NCBI GenBank assembly: GCA_958295915.1
Contig: OY282381.1
Location: forward strand, 3,556,722-3,620,721
From: an uncultured Caldilineaceae bacterium
GTDB lineage: Bacteria > Chloroflexota > Anaerolineae > Caldilineales > Caldilineaceae
Reading direction: 5' to 3'
DNA: 64,000 bases
In this document: in pieces, positions 15,195-21,876 of the stretch
How the letters are laid out: every line of letters begins with the position of its first letter
Position numbering within the stretch: position 1 is the first letter of the stretch
Translations under genes and position numbers: made by a program
Notes under the pieces: model-generated
The model's database searches: none
The model's input: the letters and a program-made list of their open reading frames with translations, nothing else
What the model was told of the DNA's origin: nothing

Positions 15195-15262
15195 CCACAA
15201 CTGCAGTGGCCAGTCACCAGTAACGGCGCTGGCCACTGGAAGCTGACTACTGGCCACTGGAT
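15195..15262. repeat. Dispersed repeat, family E
   Basis: AACTGCAGTGGCCAGTCACC and GCGCTGGCCACTGGAAGCTG and ACTACTGGCCACTGGA form overlapping palindromes. It separates the truncated glycosyltransferase from the convergent LysM gene and supplies that gene's stop codon. Confidence 0.6.
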
Positions 15263-18036
15263 TCTGTCTTGGGTACATAGCAGACTTGCCGCACGGTCAG
15301 CGCCGGGTGATCGTAGCCAAACTCTCCCGTAATCTGCCACAGGGACGAATTGCTTATAAAGATCGGCCTTACCGCGGCGCAGGCTGCCGCAGGATCACCG
15401 TTGGCGCTGTAGGTCTCTAACCAAATGCGGGCCGCTTCGGTGAATTTGCTCTGCGGCTGGCTATGAGAGAGCGTTGCCAGCATCGACTCGGCCGTCGGCC
15501 GATTGTGGCTCAGGGTCAGAATCTGCACCAGTCGGAAGCTGGCCAGCCCCCGCAGCAGGGCCATCTCCTCCGCAGGATCCGTACCGTAAATGCTGCATGG
15601 CTGCAAGCCTGACGCTTCCAGCGCGGCAGTGTACAGCTCGATGGCCGCAGCATAACCGAACACATCCGCCGTCTGCAAAGCTACATCCGCCTCGATTAGC
15701 CGCAGCCCCAAGCAGTTGTTCCCCTCACGTTCCCGGTCATACATCCAGCTGAAGCGTCGAAAGGACGCGCCCTCGATGCTGTACCAGATTTCCGTGTGGG
15801 GAACGCTCAGCCCGCCCTCCACAGTGCCACTGACCCCACCAGTGAGCCGCAGACGACGGACAGCTGTCGGCCGTTCATAATCCGCTATTTCCACGATAAC
15901 CGTGCCTTCCGCGATGCTCGCGCCCGGCTCAATGACATCCCGGTAGGTATTCGCGGTGCCGTCCCAGGCGATCACCTCCACGCTCAAGAGACAGAAAGTG
16001 GTACAACTCTCCAACTGCCAGATCAACTCCGATCTGCCGTCCGCATTGACGTCGCCTATCGCCAGTAGCTTGGGCTTGCCATGCATGTTCGGCGCGTAGG
16101 CGTTCTGATACCTGCCGTCCTCCTGCTTGTGCAGAATGATGATAGTCCCATCTTCGCCGCCCGGCCCGTAACCGACATCGCCGATGATCGTCGGTATGGC
16201 GATTACATCTTCCAGGCCGTCGTCGTTCAGGTCGTAGATCAGCAGCCCCCCGCGGTCGTCGCGCATCGCATCGCAGGCCTGCAGCCAGGCTGCGATAAGC
16301 AGCGAATCCCCCGACACCAGATTCACCATCACAGGCAGGGGAGAGAGATAATCCGCAGCTGTCTGCGGGCACTCCGGCAATCCGTCGATCTGGGCAAGAC
16401 GCGGATTCAGACGCGCCCGCGAGGTAAAGGACAGGATCGGGCAGACGTCATGCGCGCTGAATGTCGGATTGGCGTATCCGTAATCGGCCAGCACATCCAC
16501 AACGCTTTGCGTAACGGCCGCGAATTCGTTCACCACTCCGCAGGCCTTTCGGGGATCACCGGTTTGCTGGTAGGCCTTTAGCCAGCGTCGGGCTACCTCC
16601 GTGTAGATCTGTTCGCTATATTCGGATTCCAGTCGTTGCGCCCGGGCGGCGGCCAGCGCCGGATCGGCTGTATAGCCAGCGATCACAGCCAAGCGGAAGA
16701 GCGCAAAGCTGCGTAGTTCGGATAGCTCGTTGCTGCGTTCCCAGCAGGCCCGCAGATCCATGTTCTCGACCGCGGCTGTATAGAGTGCCTGCGCATTTTC
16801 GGTGTGTTCGTCGGCAAAGGCCCGGTTGGCATCCAGCACAGTGTGATAGAGGCAGTCGCTGGGGCTCAAACTCTCGCTGCTCAATGTGTACGGCGCGCCA
16901 TCTGTGCTGCTCCACACCGCCGTGTGCGCACGCTGTGGCCCGGCCCCGGCGCCGGTATACTCTCCCCCTGTCAGACGGATATCCTTGGGTATGCCGGGTT
17001 CGTCGCCGCCGGTCAATGATACATTCGCCGACGCCATTGTGATCGTGCCTTTGCTCCAATCCTGCCAGGCGACGCCATCCCAACTGCGGACGTGGACGGT
17101 GACAAAGCAGGTGCTGGTTCCACAGATGGTATCGCTCCAGATCACATCCGTCTGGTTGTCGGCATTGATGTCCTTCGTCGCCAGTAGCTCTATCTTCCCG
17201 CTAGCGGTGGTCGTGTAGCGCAGAGAGTGCGCTTCGCCGCCGCCGAGGAGTACGAGTTTCTGGCGTCCGTCCGCAGCTGTCCGCTCGTCGTCAATGATGG
17301 TGTATACGATCACGGCATCGTCCGCGCGATTGCCGCTGAGATCGGCGCTGACCAAGATGTTCAGTTCGGCCCCGCAACCCGCTAAAAATGCCGTGACTTG
17401 CGCGTAGCGATCGGTTGTGGGTGTATCGAACACAGCGGTCAATGCCTGGCCCAGATCGGCAGACATGGCTGGACATGGAGGAAAAGGCCCAGACGGGGAC
17501 GACGGCGCATGGATCCGCTGCGAAGGAGGGGTGGGCAGATCCGCGGCAGCCGGTGTATCGGTGGCTGCCGATGCAGGTGTCGGTGTGATGGGCGCCGGCG
17601 ACGAACCCGGGGCAGAAGTCGCTGCCGGCGTGGGCGATGGGAGAATGTCCGGTATCAACAGACGTTCACCGACAATCAGCACATTATCCTGCCGTTGCGC
17701 TCTGGGGTTCGCCGCCTGCAGAAGGCGCACAGACAGACCGAACTTTTCAGCAACTGTCATCCAGCCATCCCCTTGTTTGACGATATAAAACTTCTCCTCC
17801 CAACCAGGCCCGCCGGGGATGAACAGACGCTCGCCCACAATCAGCCAACCGCTCGAGCGCACCGCCTGCGGATTCGCTTTCTGCAACTCCTCTACCGTCA
17901 GCCCGACCCGTTGGCCCACCAGTTCCCAGCTATCTCCCGGCTGCACCGTGTATGTATAGCCATTTTCCTGTGCCGCAACAGTAACCATCTGGAACAGGCA
18001 AAGTAACGCGATCAATAGCGACAAAAGCCGGCCCAT
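15247..18036 (-). CDS. Exported LysM protein with duplicated FG-GAP-like/helical module
   Basis: 929 residues; ATG preceded by AGAGGAGGAA. Signal peptide at 1-22 (hydrophobic LLSLLIALLCLFQ, AxA-like cleavage), two LysM domains (about 28-74 and 82-129: YTVQPGDSW and YIVKQGDGW) that usually bind peptidoglycan-type glycans, then a Pro/Thr/Ser/Ala-rich linker (about 130-185). The rest is two copies of one module (about 190-560 and 560-929), each with Asp-rich repeats (DLSGNRADD, DINADNQTD; DLNDDGLED, DVNADGRSE) resembling FG-GAP/VCBS calcium loops, a helical TPR-like part and an AC-x-VxxxF end. Probably cell-surface, function unknown. The last residues and the stop lie in a family E repeat. Confidence 0.8.
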   Translation of the reverse strand: MGRLLSLLIALLCLFQMVTVAAQENGYTYTVQPGDSWELVGQRVGLTVEELQKANPQAVRSSGWLIVGERLFIPGGPGWEEKFYIVKQGDGWMTVAEKFGLSVRLLQAANPRAQRQDNVLIVGERLLIPDILPSPTPAATSAPGSSPAPITPTPASAATDTPAAADLPTPPSQRIHAPSSPSGPFPPCPAMSADLGQALTAVFDTPTTDRYAQVTAFLAGCGAELNILVSADLSGNRADDAVIVYTIIDDERTAADGRQKLVLLGGGEAHSLRYTTTASGKIELLATKDINADNQTDVIWSDTICGTSTCFVTVHVRSWDGVAWQDWSKGTITMASANVSLTGGDEPGIPKDIRLTGGEYTGAGAGPQRAHTAVWSSTDGAPYTLSSESLSPSDCLYHTVLDANRAFADEHTENAQALYTAAVENMDLRACWERSNELSELRSFALFRLAVIAGYTADPALAAARAQRLESEYSEQIYTEVARRWLKAYQQTGDPRKACGVVNEFAAVTQSVVDVLADYGYANPTFSAHDVCPILSFTSRARLNPRLAQIDGLPECPQTAADYLSPLPVMVNLVSGDSLLIAAWLQACDAMRDDRGGLLIYDLNDDGLEDVIAIPTIIGDVGYGPGGEDGTIIILHKQEDGRYQNAYAPNMHGKPKLLAIGDVNADGRSELIWQLESCTTFCLLSVEVIAWDGTANTYRDVIEPGASIAEGTVIVEIADYERPTAVRRLRLTGGVSGTVEGGLSVPHTEIWYSIEGASFRRFSWMYDREREGNNCLGLRLIEADVALQTADVFGYAAAIELYTAALEASGLQPCSIYGTDPAEEMALLRGLASFRLVQILTLSHNRPTAESMLATLSHSQPQSKFTEAARIWLETYSANGDPAAACAAVRPIFISNSSLWQITGEFGYDHPALTVRQVCYVPKTESSGQ

Positions 18037-18161: not shown

Positions 18162-18191
18162 TTAGCCGGCCTGTTCGTCACGGGGTACAAT
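18162..18191 (+). promoter_or_regulatory. Possible leaderless promoter of the TrmA-like gene
   Basis: TTAGCC (18162-18167), 18 bases, TACAAT (18186-18191), then ATG at 18198 only 6 bases later. The transcript would start at or next to the ATG. No properly spaced ribosome-binding site is present. Confidence 0.4.
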
Positions 18192-18197
18192 GCAGGG

Positions 18198-19595
18198 ATG
18201 AACGCGCTTGTTTCTATCGAATTGACGCATGTGGCTGCCACCGGGGAAGCCATCGCTCGGGACAAGGATGGCCGCGTGGTCTTCGTCGCCGATGCCATCC
18301 CCGGTGAAACTGTCGAGGTCGAAATCGTCGAAGAAACGAAGCGCTGGCGCCGAGGAATCCTGCGCACGGTGCTGAAGGCCAGCCCGGATCGGGTGATGGC
18401 TCTCTGCCCGCACTTTGGACCCCCCCAGCCGGTCGCTTTGTCCGACGGTCGCGTCCTCAATGAATCCGGCGCGCCCCGCTGCGCCGGTTGTGTGTGGCAG
18501 CAAATCGACTACGAACGCCAGTTGGCTCTGAAACGGGAGATCGTTGTCGATACCCTGACCCGCAACGGACGCCCCGGCAAGACGTGGGAACAGAGCAGAC
18601 AGATCATCGAAACGCTGGTGGCGGAGGTGGTAGCCCTCGGCGCGCAAGAAGCTGAAAATGCCGTGCTGGATTTCGGCTTCCGCACACAGATGCGTTTCGA
18701 TGTGGGACAATCCGGCCGCCTGACCCTTACGGGGCGCAATGGCGACCGCCTGGCAATCGATGAATGTCCTCTCCATCACCCGCAGCTCGCACAACTTTTT
18801 GCAGGATTCCGTGTCGATAAGAATGAAGATCTCTCTACAGCGGTGCACCGCGTTACGCTGGCCGTGGGCGGCACAGCCGACTTCCTGAGCGACAGGGCAA
18901 AGGGTGTGCTCATCCTGCATAGCCACCGCGACGAACCGCCCGGCCTGGAACTGGAGCTGCCGGTGAATGCCTTTCTGCTCCATGAAAGAGATGAACCTTC
19001 CCTGGAACTGCTGGTGGGCGACTGGACCTACAGCGCGCAAGTGGACGGCCATCCGCTGACCGCCTACCCCCCAATTGGCGACGACATCCACGCCGGACAT
19101 CTGCTGGCGGATGAAGTCCTGGTGGCTGTAGCCGCAGAACTCCTCGAACTGAAGCCTTTCGAGCATCTTCTGGAACTGTGGGCCGACATCGGCGCACGCG
19201 CAACCCTGCTGGCGGAACAGGTCGCCACAATCATCGCCGTTGAAGAGGCCGAACTGGCCGTGGCCGCCTTGCGCGCCAATCTGGCCGGGCTGGACAACGC
19301 CGACGCCTGGCAGGGAGAGATGCTCCCTACTATACGTAAGCTGCGCCGAGCCGGATACCGCTTCGATGCTGTGCTGCTCACGCCACCGGATGGGGCCATC
19401 GAGCCGGAGTTGTTTTCCTTGCTCACACGTATGCGCATCCGTCGTTGTGGCTTGATCACAGCCGACCCGCTAAGCCTGGCCCGGGCGCTGACGGCAGTAG
19501 ACGAGGCTGGATATCGCCTGGCAGCGGTGCAGCCCATCGATCTTCAGCCCCACCAGCCGGGCGTGACGCTTGTCGCACGCTTTGACAGGAAGTGA
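18198..19595 (+). CDS. TrmA/RlmD-family-like protein lacking catalytic motifs
   Basis: 465 residues from ATG 18198, where the TRAM domain begins (ELTHVAATGEAIARDKDGRVVFVADAIPGE, up to about 60). Family members methylate uridine-5 in tRNA or 23S rRNA. The four iron-sulfur cysteines are kept: C70, C95, C98 (CAGC) and C190, with the FRTQMRF that follows in the family. The methyltransferase part is not: where relatives have a DLYCGxGxF SAM motif there is LELWADIGARATLL; DPPR is LTPPDG; and the SCNP nucleophile is ITADP, with no cysteine. It therefore looks like a catalytically dead but full-length RNA-binding protein, or a divergent enzyme. Confidence 0.75.
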   Translation: MNALVSIELTHVAATGEAIARDKDGRVVFVADAIPGETVEVEIVEETKRWRRGILRTVLKASPDRVMALCPHFGPPQPVALSDGRVLNESGAPRCAGCVWQQIDYERQLALKREIVVDTLTRNGRPGKTWEQSRQIIETLVAEVVALGAQEAENAVLDFGFRTQMRFDVGQSGRLTLTGRNGDRLAIDECPLHHPQLAQLFAGFRVDKNEDLSTAVHRVTLAVGGTADFLSDRAKGVLILHSHRDEPPGLELELPVNAFLLHERDEPSLELLVGDWTYSAQVDGHPLTAYPPIGDDIHAGHLLADEVLVAVAAELLELKPFEHLLELWADIGARATLLAEQVATIIAVEEAELAVAALRANLAGLDNADAWQGEMLPTIRKLRRAGYRFDAVLLTPPDGAIEPELFSLLTRMRIRRCGLITADPLSLARALTAVDEAGYRLAAVQPIDLQPHQPGVTLVARFDRK

Positions 19596-19724: not shown

Positions 19725-20603
19725 ATGACCGCTCCAATTCAAATCCGTACCCTGACCTCTGTTGAAGACTGCCGCCGCCTGCAGGATGTGCAAAACCGCA
19801 TCTGGCGCAGTGAGCCAGACGATATTATGCCGATTCATGTGCTGATCACCCAGGCCAAGAATGGTGGCCTGCTTCAGGGCGCATTTGCCAGGGAGGGCGC
19901 GCATGAGACAGACGGTATGGTCGGTTTTTCTTTCGGCTGGCCGGCATTTGGCCGGAATAGCGCCGGCCAGCGACGGCTCAAGTTTTGCAGCCATATCGTC
20001 GGTGTTCTGCCCGATTGGCAAGGGCGCGGCATCGGTCTCCAACTCAAGCTATCCCAGCGGCAAGAGTTGCTGCGCCAAGGGTGGACCGACTGGGTCACCT
20101 GGACATATGACCCTCTGCAGCGAGTGAACGGACGGCTGAATATCCACCGCCTGGGCGGCGTCAGCGCCACATATCTGCGCAATATGTACAGTGAGATGCA
20201 CGACAGCCTCAACGCCGATATGCCGACAGACCGCTTTCAGGTGGACTGGTATCTGAATAGCCCACAGGTGGAGAAAGCCCTCTCCGTCGACCGCCGGCCC
20301 TCTCGAGGCGAACCGACTGGGTGGCGAACCTCTGATTTGCAACGCGCCCGCACCCGCTTGGTAAGCGCCAGCCATGATCTGCGGGCCCCGATCGAGCCAG
20401 CGCCAACCCCGGACAGCCGGCCGTATGCGCTCCCTCTACCGGACAATGTCGATGTCTTGCGCCGCGTCAGTGACATTCTGCTGTTCGACTGGCGGATGTA
20501 TGTCCGTCATGCCGCCGAAAGCTGCCTGGCCGCCGGCTACACGCTGGTGGACTGTATCCTGATTGAAGATGAGTGGCATTATATCTTCGCCTTTCGGGTC
20601 TGA
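19725..20603 (+). CDS. Predicted GNAT-superfamily acetyltransferase (COG3375-like)
   Basis: 292 residues. IRTLTSVEDCRRLQDVQNRIW at the N-terminus and VGFSFGWPAFG, then CSHIVGVLPDWQGRGIGLQLKLSQR, with the acetyl-CoA-binding Q/RxxGxG/A loop as QGRGIG. WTYDPLQRVNGRLNIHRLGGVSATYLRNMY is highly typical of the COG3375 group. The substrate of this group is unknown. The gene stands alone, upstream of sodN. Confidence 0.8.
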   Translation: MTAPIQIRTLTSVEDCRRLQDVQNRIWRSEPDDIMPIHVLITQAKNGGLLQGAFAREGAHETDGMVGFSFGWPAFGRNSAGQRRLKFCSHIVGVLPDWQGRGIGLQLKLSQRQELLRQGWTDWVTWTYDPLQRVNGRLNIHRLGGVSATYLRNMYSEMHDSLNADMPTDRFQVDWYLNSPQVEKALSVDRRPSRGEPTGWRTSDLQRARTRLVSASHDLRAPIEPAPTPDSRPYALPLPDNVDVLRRVSDILLFDWRMYVRHAAESCLAAGYTLVDCILIEDEWHYIFAFRV

Positions 20604-20803: not shown

Positions 20804-21256
20804 ATGTTTCAGAAAGCCATTGCCAGACTACTCGCCAAGACCGCAGTGAAAACTGTCAGCGCCCACTGTGACGGACCCTGCGGTGTGTATGACCCAGCCT
20901 CTGCTCGCATTGCCGCAGAAGCGGCTCTTTCGATGACCAAGAAGATCATGGCCCTGGACCCGACAGGGATTGCCGATAGCAATACCCTTTCCCGCTTCAT
21001 CAGCATCAAAGAGGAGCAGGCGCACCTGGCCAAGACAGAGTTGCTGGTTCTCTGGACCGACTACTTCAAGCCGGAGCATCTGGACCAGTACCCGGACCTG
21101 CATGACAAGTTCTGGAAGGCCGCCAAGTTGTGCTCGGCTGTCAAACAGGAAGTCAATGAGGAGGCAGCCAACAATCTGATGGCGGCCATTGAGGATATCC
21201 ACAATATCTTCTGGGCCACGAAAGGGCGGGATGTGACCTATTACGTGGCCACCTGA
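20804..21256 (+). CDS. sodN: Nickel superoxide dismutase
   Basis: 150 residues from ATG 20804, with AAAGGA 6 bases upstream. Disproportionates superoxide with a nickel centre. The nickel hook HCDGPCGVY (H21-Y29) matches the family signature HCxxPCGxY; the mature enzyme must begin with H21, whose free amino group, H and cysteines C22 and C26 ligate nickel. Residues 1-20 (MFQKAIARLLAKTAVKTVSA) are the propeptide to be removed by SodX, which is encoded downstream. The remaining 130 residues form the four-helix bundle (ARIAAEAALSMTKKI, IKEEQAHLAKTELLVLWTDYF). Length is normal. A terminator follows. Confidence 0.95.
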   Translation: MFQKAIARLLAKTAVKTVSAHCDGPCGVYDPASARIAAEAALSMTKKIMALDPTGIADSNTLSRFISIKEEQAHLAKTELLVLWTDYFKPEHLDQYPDLHDKFWKAAKLCSAVKQEVNEEAANNLMAAIEDIHNIFWATKGRDVTYYVAT

Positions 21257-21471: not shown

Positions 21472-21876
21472 ATGTGGAAGCGGAACCCGCGCCTCTCTCG
21501 AGCAGAGGCGCATTCAACCCTTCCCCGTAGCGGCTGGCGGGAGATGGCGTTATGGCTGCTACGCAGGCGGCGGCTATTCCGGGTAACCGGGGAATCCATG
21601 ATGCCGACACTATGCGCCGGAGCGGTTGTGCTGTTGGATCCCTATGCCTACCGTAAGGGCGTAGTGCCCCAGGAGGACGAAATCGTTGTAGCGCGGCATC
21701 CCCGCCAGGCGGAACTGTGGATCATCAAGCGGGTGGCGGCGGTGATCGAAAGCGATACCGCGGCCATACGGCTTGTGCTGTCCAGCGACAACCGGGCAGC
21801 CGGCGCGGATAGCCGCGCCTTCGGAGCGGTTGCGGGCGACCTCGTCCTGGGGCGGGTGACCAGTCTCCTGCGCTGA
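21472..21876 (+). CDS. sodX: Nickel-type superoxide dismutase maturation protease
   Basis: 134 residues from ATG 21472. S26-type signal-peptidase-like serine protease that trims the SodN propeptide so that the nickel-binding histidine becomes N-terminal. The nucleophile is S42 in VTGESMMPTL and the general base K86 in ELWIIKRVAA; VVLLDPYAYR and DEIVVARHP are typical. The conserved protein begins at about M25 (ATG 21544). Residues 6-17 are encoded by a family B palindrome (21489-21511), inserted in frame between the ribosome-binding region and the body. Start is therefore either 21472 (GGGGCGG upstream) or 21544. Pairing with sodN supports the call. Confidence 0.88.
   Translation: MWKRNPRLSRAEAHSTLPRSGWREMALWLLRRRRLFRVTGESMMPTLCAGAVVLLDPYAYRKGVVPQEDEIVVARHPRQAELWIIKRVAAVIESDTAAIRLVLSSDNRAAGADSRAFGAVAGDLVLGRVTSLLR
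21489..21511. repeat. Family B palindrome inside the sodX 5' end
   Basis: GCGCCTCT-CTCGAGC-AGAGGCGC followed by ATTCAAC. Translated in frame as part of RLSRAEAHSTL if the 21472 start is used. Confidence 0.75.

What the first reader, a model, noticed from the sequence alone, without database searches (positions are those of the whole stretch)
18198..19595. TrmA/RlmD-like protein that keeps the iron-sulfur cysteines but lost the catalytic cysteine
TRAM domain and C70/C95/C98/C190 are present, while the SAM motif, DPPR and SCNP positions read ADIGA, TPPDG and TADP. The gene is full length and in good codon context, so it may be a pseudoenzyme that binds RNA or an enzyme with new chemistry.
Basis: partly seen in the sequence, partly recalled or inferred. 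Interest (0 to 1): 0.6.

Follow-up and report, generated by a model that had tools for sequence, protein, structure and literature searches.

The report
Dead RNA methylase kept by evolution
The gene encodes an RNA-methylating enzyme of the RlmD/TrmA kind whose chemical machinery is gone but whose iron-sulfur and RNA-binding body is preserved, and the same loss has happened several times in related bacteria, which suggests that the protein matters for something other than adding methyl groups.

Summary
Window 18198-19595 (+) is a live, full-length gene of the RlmD/TrmA (m5U methyltransferase) family from a Caldilineaceae bacterium (Chloroflexota, Anaerolineae). It keeps the TRAM domain, the fold (AlphaFold pLDDT 93; RumA at 2.7 A over 399 residues) and all four iron-sulfur cysteines. 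It has lost the nucleophile (Cys389 to Ala422), the general base (Glu424 to Thr457) and the uridine/methyl-site residues Gln265, Asp363 and Arg366. No intact copy was found in the genome. This is not decay: orthologues are in 16 of 17 genomes of the genus, close pairs have dN/dS 0.13-0.29, and the promoter is conserved. Nor is it isolated. In a systematic sample of 80 Anaerolineae genomes, 18 carry a dead copy, all with four cysteines; AU tests reject a single loss and support at least four. In other Chloroflexota classes, 60 of 60 sampled genes keep the catalytic quartet while 15 of 60 lack an iron-sulfur cysteine. I read it as a recurrently evolved iron-sulfur pseudo-methyltransferase kept for a non-catalytic, probably RNA-binding (chaperone or assembly) job. 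RNA binding is untested. The 'lost SAM motif' is a change private to this sequence; relatives keep the glycines.

The parts
18162..18191 (+). Putative promoter: TTAGCC (18162-18167), 18 nt, TACAAT (18186-18191), then 6 nt to the ATG, so probably a leaderless mRNA
   Evidence: TANAAT at the same distance from the ATG in 16 of 16 genus members while sequence further upstream diverges
18198..19595 (+). Pseudo-methyltransferase gene of the RlmD/TrmA family, 465 aa plus stop
   Evidence: AlphaFold2 mean pLDDT 93.4
18207..18377 (+). TRAM (OB-fold) domain, residues about 4-60
   Evidence: Pfam PF01938 24.5 bits over residues 14-48; strands in the model
18405..18407 (+). C70, first iron-sulfur cysteine (E. 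coli C81)
   Evidence: alignment
18420..18479 (+). Caldilineaceae-specific insert between iron-sulfur cysteines 1 and 2 (residues about 75-94; P78, V79 and N88 invariant in 20 of 20)
18480..18491 (+). C95 and C98, second and third iron-sulfur cysteines (E. coli C87, C90)
18765..18767 (+). C190, fourth iron-sulfur cysteine (E. coli C162)
19053..19592 (+). Class I (Rossmann-like) methyltransferase domain, residues 286-465, catalytically degenerate but under strong purifying selection
   Evidence: NG86 dN/dS 0.09-0.25 for this domain in nine close pairs; fold match
19092..19100 (+). A299 and H301 (E. coli Q265 and N267); H301 is invariant in 20 of 20 Caldilineaceae sequences
19185..19193 (+). Motif I D330-I-G332: Gly to Asp at residue 330 is private to this sequence
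19380..19391 (+). TPPD at the DPPR motif (D363 to T395, R366 to D398)
19458..19469 (+). TADP at the SCNP motif (nucleophile C389 to A422)
   Evidence: strand 416-421 then helix 424-436 in the model
19566..19568 (+). T457 at the general-base position (E424), Thr in 20 of 20 Caldilineaceae sequences

Best explanation
It is a pseudo-methyltransferase, descended from a working RlmD-type 23S rRNA m5U methyltransferase. Shown by sequence: it lacks what the known m5U reaction needs, because the nucleophile, the general base and the residues that hold the flipped uridine are gone, with no replacement cysteine at the site. Shown: the gene is live, conserved and under purifying selection over its whole length including the methyltransferase domain, and the same end state was reached several times in Anaerolineae. 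Inferred: the [4Fe-4S] cluster still assembles and staples the TRAM/central RNA-binding face, and the protein works by binding and remodelling RNA (rRNA in ribosome assembly, or tRNA) without modifying it, like the catalysis-independent chaperone activity of E. coli TrmA. Inferred: because tRNA m5U54 is made by TrmFO in these genomes, only the rRNA methyl group was given up. Likelihoods: 0.9 that it makes no m5U, 0.85 that it is a maintained functional protein, about 0.5 that the function is RNA chaperone or ribosome assembly.
For: Catalytic residues. No intact copy in the single-contig genome (99% complete): the protein search found only itself at E<=10; in the rumA search the other hits are short stretches of the generic methyltransferase domain, at most 29.3 bits, and PF05958 found nothing over its cut-off. 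Genus-wide conservation: 16 of 17 genomes. Selection. Promoter footprint. Model pLDDT 93.4 with RumA 2bh2 at Z 36.8, 2.7 A over 399 residues. Recurrence: 18 of 74 classifiable genomes in a systematic class sample carry a dead copy, 17 of them only a dead copy, 18 of 18 with CCCC; one-clade AU tests rejected for all dead genes (p 0.0004) and for four groupings of dead lineages (p 3.7e-05 to 0.003). Double dissociation: 60 of 60 genes of other classes keep QDCE and 15 of 60 lack an aligned iron-sulfur cysteine (Fisher p 1.2e-05 and 1.7e-06). TrmFO is present in the own genome (622.6 bits) and in 18 of 18 dead-copy genomes of the sample. Precedents: TrmA protein, not its activity, reported essential, and bovine TRMT2B lacking its cysteine (PMC7237155, passages read); TrmA as tRNA chaperone (PMC11301382, passages); active RlmCD has no cluster, so the cluster is not catalytic (PMC5614603, passages).
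Against: RNA binding is inferred, not shown. The Caldilineaceae proteins are more acidic (mean net charge -23) than intact Chloroflexota ones (mean -16), mostly in the central domain. The groove arginine R128 (RlmCD R127, important for RNA binding in PMC6235398) is kept in only 37 of 67 dead genes and 13 of 20 Caldilineaceae, though this sequence has it (R162). One genus member (G007, 98% complete) has no match, so the gene is not indispensable. Four of 67 dead genes have lost one or more iron-sulfur cysteines, so the cluster is not required everywhere. No conserved RNA-related neighbour was found in Caldilineaceae.
Confidence: 0.7

Rival explanations
1. Repurposed enzyme: the pocket now does another reaction, with SAM or another ligand, using newly fixed residues.
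For: In Caldilineaceae the site has new fixed residues: H301 at N267 and T457 at E424 in 20 of 20, acidic D/E at the nucleophile position in 19 of 20. G296, G298 and E315 of the cofactor pocket are kept in 66, 67 and 58 of 67 dead genes. The methyltransferase domain has low dN/dS (0.09-0.25).
Against: Replacements differ between lineages (S, D, G, E, H, Q, R, A at the nucleophile) and between the window and its sisters (A versus D/E), and D330 interrupts motif I in this very sequence, so no shared new active site is seen.
Confidence: 0.15
2. SAM- or SAH-binding sensor: the protein binds the cofactor without transferring methyl and uses it to gate RNA binding.
For: Cofactor-pocket glycines and ribose-binding glutamate are kept while target-base residues are lost (RlmCD E333 contacts the ribose, PMC5614603 passages).
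Against: Glycines may be kept for the fold alone. F263 at the homocysteine pocket (RlmCD F281) is kept in 13 of 67. The window sequence has D330.
Confidence: 0.1
3. Gene in decay (pseudogene) or an assembly error.
For: Catalytic residues are lost and the window copy has private changes at two positions otherwise conserved in its clade.
Against: Open full-length frame, 16 of 17 genomes of the genus, dN/dS 0.13-0.29, conserved promoter.
Confidence: 0.02
4. Still an m5U methyltransferase with a displaced nucleophile (C417).
For: C417 is present in all 16 genus members.
Against: It lies at the far end of the strand before the site, is absent from the other four Caldilineaceae sequences in A1, and general base, Q265, D363 and R366 are gone too.
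Confidence: 0.03

Closest known systems
E. coli RlmD (RumA), 23S rRNA m5U1939 methyltransferase
   Same: TRAM, central and methyltransferase domains, four iron-sulfur cysteines, whole fold (Z 36.8, 2.7 A over 399 residues, 24% identity)
   Different: Nucleophile, general base and the Q, D and R of the uridine site are all replaced; insert between iron-sulfur cysteines 1 and 2
S. pneumoniae RlmCD (SP_1029)
   Same: Fold (Z 37.8, 2.2 A over 418 residues)
   Different: RlmCD is active and has no iron-sulfur cluster (PMC5614603, passages): the mirror image of this protein
E. coli TrmA as tRNA chaperone with a catalysis-independent role
   Same: Possible mode of action
   Different: TrmA is also active and lacks the TRAM part and the first three cysteines; chaperone action is not shown here
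Bovine mitochondrial TRMT2B, natural Cys-to-Tyr variant
   Same: A naturally dead family member, proposed to be a chaperone (PMC7237155, passages)
   Different: Eukaryotic; the paper reports loss of the cysteine in some species. Here three or four of the quartet are lost in 64 of 67 genes and the loss recurs across bacterial families

Membership tests
RlmD/TrmA m5U methyltransferases (TIGR00479, COG2265) | Homology and overall fold | tested here: met
   1uwv E 1.9e-19; RumA and RlmCD fold over about 400 residues
RlmD/TrmA m5U methyltransferases (TIGR00479, COG2265) | Curated equivalog score (183.55 bits) | tested here: not met
   126.2 bits
RlmD/TrmA m5U methyltransferases (TIGR00479, COG2265) | Nucleophilic cysteine | tested here: not met
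   A422; no cysteine at the site in any of the 20 Caldilineaceae sequences
RlmD/TrmA m5U methyltransferases (TIGR00479, COG2265) | General-base glutamate | tested here: not met
   T457, Thr in 20 of 20
RlmD/TrmA m5U methyltransferases (TIGR00479, COG2265) | Gln and Asp of the uridine/methyl site | tested here: not met
   A299, T395
RlmD/TrmA m5U methyltransferases (TIGR00479, COG2265) | SAM-binding motif I and ribose-binding acidic residue | tested here: inconclusive
   G332 and E349 kept, G330 changed to D here only; binding not measured
RlmD-type iron-sulfur proteins | Four cysteine ligands | tested here: met
   C70, C95, C98, C190; the cluster itself was not measured
tRNA/RNA chaperones of the TrmA kind | Catalysis-independent RNA folding activity | not testable with these tools
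   needs a folding assay

The most novel reading that the evidence does not exclude
In Anaerolineae the RlmD protein has been uncoupled from its chemistry again and again: the enzyme dies, the iron-sulfur RNA-binding body and the cofactor pocket stay. In other classes of the same phylum the reverse occurs. The protein's selected job there would be non-catalytic (an RNA chaperone or assembly factor, possibly gated by SAM/SAH), and these lineages would be natural catalytic-dead replacements that separate the role of an rRNA methylase from that of its methyl mark.
Probability: 0.4. Interest if true: 0.8.

Novelty: new variant of a known kind. Interest (0 to 1): 0.62.

Why it matters
Whether rRNA and tRNA methylases are kept for their methyl mark or for the act of binding RNA is an old question, raised for TrmA, TruB and Trm2. 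A bacterial class in which about a quarter of sampled genomes carry a conserved methylase without its chemistry gives many natural tests of it, and separates the iron-sulfur cluster's role from catalysis. It also warns that annotating these genes as '23S rRNA methyltransferase' would predict m5U where none should be.

Tried and rejected
Pseudogene, assembly error and displaced nucleophile were considered and rejected (see rivals). An active paralogue as partner in this genome: none found. A replacement m5U1939 enzyme of the TrmFO/RlmFO kind: the genome has one TrmFO match, over the curated cut-off. Loss of the rRNA target: the loop holding U1939 is present exactly, twice (the pattern and the place of U1939 in it are recalled, in line with the numbering in PMC6235398).

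Gene neighbourhood: in the genus the order around the gene is conserved (LysM protein upstream on the other strand, GNAT-like gene downstream), and in other lineages PNPase is near four of the loci compared: two dead, one intact, one with only Q265 changed. None of this fixed a function.

TrmFO absence goes with an intact gene in 6 of 6 genomes, but the association is not significant (p 0.33).

dN/dS over all 207 intact pairs had median 0.67. I set it aside as saturation: most of those pairs are far apart in protein sequence yet show low apparent dS at high GC. In the seven intact pairs with dS under 0.5 the range is 0.04-0.25. The 126 dead pairs include duplicates of the same genomes under two locus ids.

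Trees: one search left out near-duplicates and fragments (111 rows used) and still held the catalytic columns, so (143 rows; 70 rows chosen by me) removed them. The quick trees have many weak forks; only with the AU tests is used for independence, and those groups were named after seeing the tree. The set of 67 dead and 83 intact genes is enriched for low scorers by choice, so it gives no frequency; 18 of 74 does. In that sample one genome (G293) had only a fragment and is not counted, and two genes cut off before residue 424 (L241, L244) were counted as intact. In one search a gap at a quartet position counts as lost. The loci were found through a pattern that includes the CxGC motif, so they were left out of the iron-sulfur counts. 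The 60 genes of other classes were taken from listed, that is stronger, matches.

A residue-level superposition was not possible: coordinates of the model are not in the script box. Literature: no paper on dead bacterial RlmD/TrmA was found in the searches; the library lacks most subscription papers.

Full report
WHAT IS THERE. The frame at 18198-19595 (+) is a 465-aa gene. It matches RlmD (TIGR00479, 126.2 bits, cut-off 183.55), TRAM and RumA 1uwv. Aligned to E. coli RlmD, the four iron-sulfur cysteines are C70, C95, C98 and C190, while Q265, D363, R366, C389, H422 and E424 read A299, T395, D398, A422, G455 and T457. The protein has five cysteines; the fifth, C417, is at the start of the strand before the nucleophile position and, among the 20 sequences of alignment A1, is found in the 16 of the genus only.

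SETTING. The window lies in a single-contig genome of 5.06 Mb (99% complete). Related named contigs are Caldilineaceae MAGs, so the host is a Caldilineaceae bacterium (Chloroflexota, Anaerolineae). No other RlmD/TrmA gene was found in the genome: the protein search found only itself; in the rumA search the remaining hits are short stretches of the generic methyltransferase domain, at most 29.3 bits; and PF05958 gave nothing over its cut-off. TrmFO, which makes tRNA m5U54, is present (622.6 bits), and the 23S loop with U1939 is intact in both copies found.

IT IS A LIVE GENE. In the order, 28 of 46 genomes have a match: 16 of 17 in the genus, 7 of 7 in a Litorilinea-like genus (one a fragment), one of one and one of two in two other genera carry the window's type, and three genomes carry only the short intact type (residues were read for the loci, and the rest of the order-level hits rest on the profile score). 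Nine close pairs have NG86 dN/dS of 0.13-0.29, the methyltransferase domain 0.09-0.25. Seven close intact pairs (dS under 0.5) give 0.04-0.25, so constraint on the dead form is of similar order. The sequence upstream is diverged except for a -35/-10-like pair ending 6 nt before the ATG; TANAAT is in place in 16 of 16. The AlphaFold2 model, from 72 sequences, has pLDDT 93.4 and fits RumA 2bh2 with Z 36.8, 2.7 A over 399 residues.

IT IS NOT ALONE. A systematic sample was taken of 80 Anaerolineae genomes (every fourth handle from G037 to G409, 94 in all, of which 14 were dropped to fit the limit of 80). 75 had a match and 74 could be classified: 54 intact only, 18 with a dead copy (one of them also intact), 2 with only Q265 changed. 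All 75 genes read kept four cysteines. Over all genes not found through an iron-sulfur pattern (152: 67 dead, 83 intact, 2 partial; enriched for dead), the dead come from 11 families and 41 genera as coded by the tool. 34 of 67 lost all four quartet residues, 30 lost three, 3 lost two. Iron-sulfur cysteines are complete in 63 of 67. Kept counts in the 67 dead genes: C389 0 (by definition), Q265 4, D363 25, R366 7, F263 13, H422 10, E424 7; against G296 66, G298 67, E315 58, R76 67, Q93 67.

IT HAPPENED MORE THAN ONCE. With the catalytic columns removed, a careful tree of 70 rows needs ten changes of the dead/not-dead label. Holding all dead rows together costs 622 log units (p 0.0004). Joining Caldilineaceae+f15 with f20, f20 with f35, Caldilineaceae+f15 with f35, or L071 with Caldilineaceae+f15 is rejected (p 3.7e-05, 0.003, 0.003, 0.002). 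I read this as at least four losses, the groups having been named after the tree was seen; L071 was tested against Caldilineaceae+f15 only, but sits inside an intact clade with 100/100 support. In other classes of the phylum 60 of 60 genes keep QDCE and 15 of 60 lack one or more aligned cysteines: catalysis and cluster come apart in opposite directions (Fisher p 1.2e-05 and 1.7e-06; rows are related by descent, so these p values are only a guide).

HOW IT LIKELY WORKS. In RlmCD the target uridine is held by Q283, D381, residue 443 (Glu, Gln in the crystal), R384 and F281, R127 holds the next phosphate, and E333 holds the cofactor ribose (PMC6235398 and PMC5614603, passages; R127 maps to RumA R128 by the alignment). 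The residues for the flipped uridine are the ones lost; the fold core, cluster ligands and cofactor-pocket glycines are the ones kept. RumA's cluster loop touches RNA through G89 (PMC5614603), and G89 is kept in 20 of 20 Caldilineaceae and 54 of 67 dead genes. The 3' hairpin of the RumA substrate sits between TRAM and the catalytic domain (PMC6235398), a surface away from the target base. I therefore infer RNA binding without modification. Against this: acidic charge (-23 against -16), and R128 kept in only 37 of 67. TrmA's reported non-catalytic essential role and chaperone activity (PMC7237155, PMC11301382, passages) are the nearest precedent; the original TrmA papers were not read.

WHAT IS OPEN. 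In Caldilineaceae the old site has new fixed residues (H301, T457 in 20 of 20, acidic in 19 of 20 at the nucleophile), so a repurposed pocket remains possible. The window copy itself differs from its sisters at two places (A422, D330), which argues that neither is vital.

VERDICT. Observation confirmed; pseudoenzyme reading supported; RNA-binding half untested; the recurrent, clade-wide loss with iron-sulfur retention is the new part. No report of it was found in the searches and 75 of an open-access library.

Noticed in passing
window 20804-21253 and 21472-21873 (+): Nickel superoxide dismutase (Pfam Sod_Ni, E 1.5e-47) followed by a small S26-type signal peptidase, probably its maturation protease; both conserved beside the gene in the genus.
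   Followed up: partly
window 15250-18036 (-): 929-aa protein with two LysM domains and a roughly duplicated C-terminal part with weak FG-GAP matches, conserved upstream in the genus and in other Caldilineaceae.
   Followed up: no
window 19725-20600 (+): GNAT-like protein by eye, but no Pfam family at E 0.01; conserved downstream in the genus and two other Caldilineaceae loci.
   Followed up: no
L017, L018, L065, L066 C-termini: Litorilinea-type orthologues carry an extra K/R-rich C-terminal tail ending in KKGSGTKRSR, which looks like a nucleic-acid-binding tail.
   Followed up: no
L250, L252, L254, L255, L260, L265, L267, L272, L291, L301-L304, L306, L308: In other Chloroflexota classes RlmD-type genes with an intact catalytic quartet lack one or more aligned iron-sulfur cysteines (15 of 60).
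   Followed up: partly
L073, L082, L108, L127: PNPase gene close to the RlmD-like gene in four loci of other lineages, dead, intact and intermediate.
   Followed up: no
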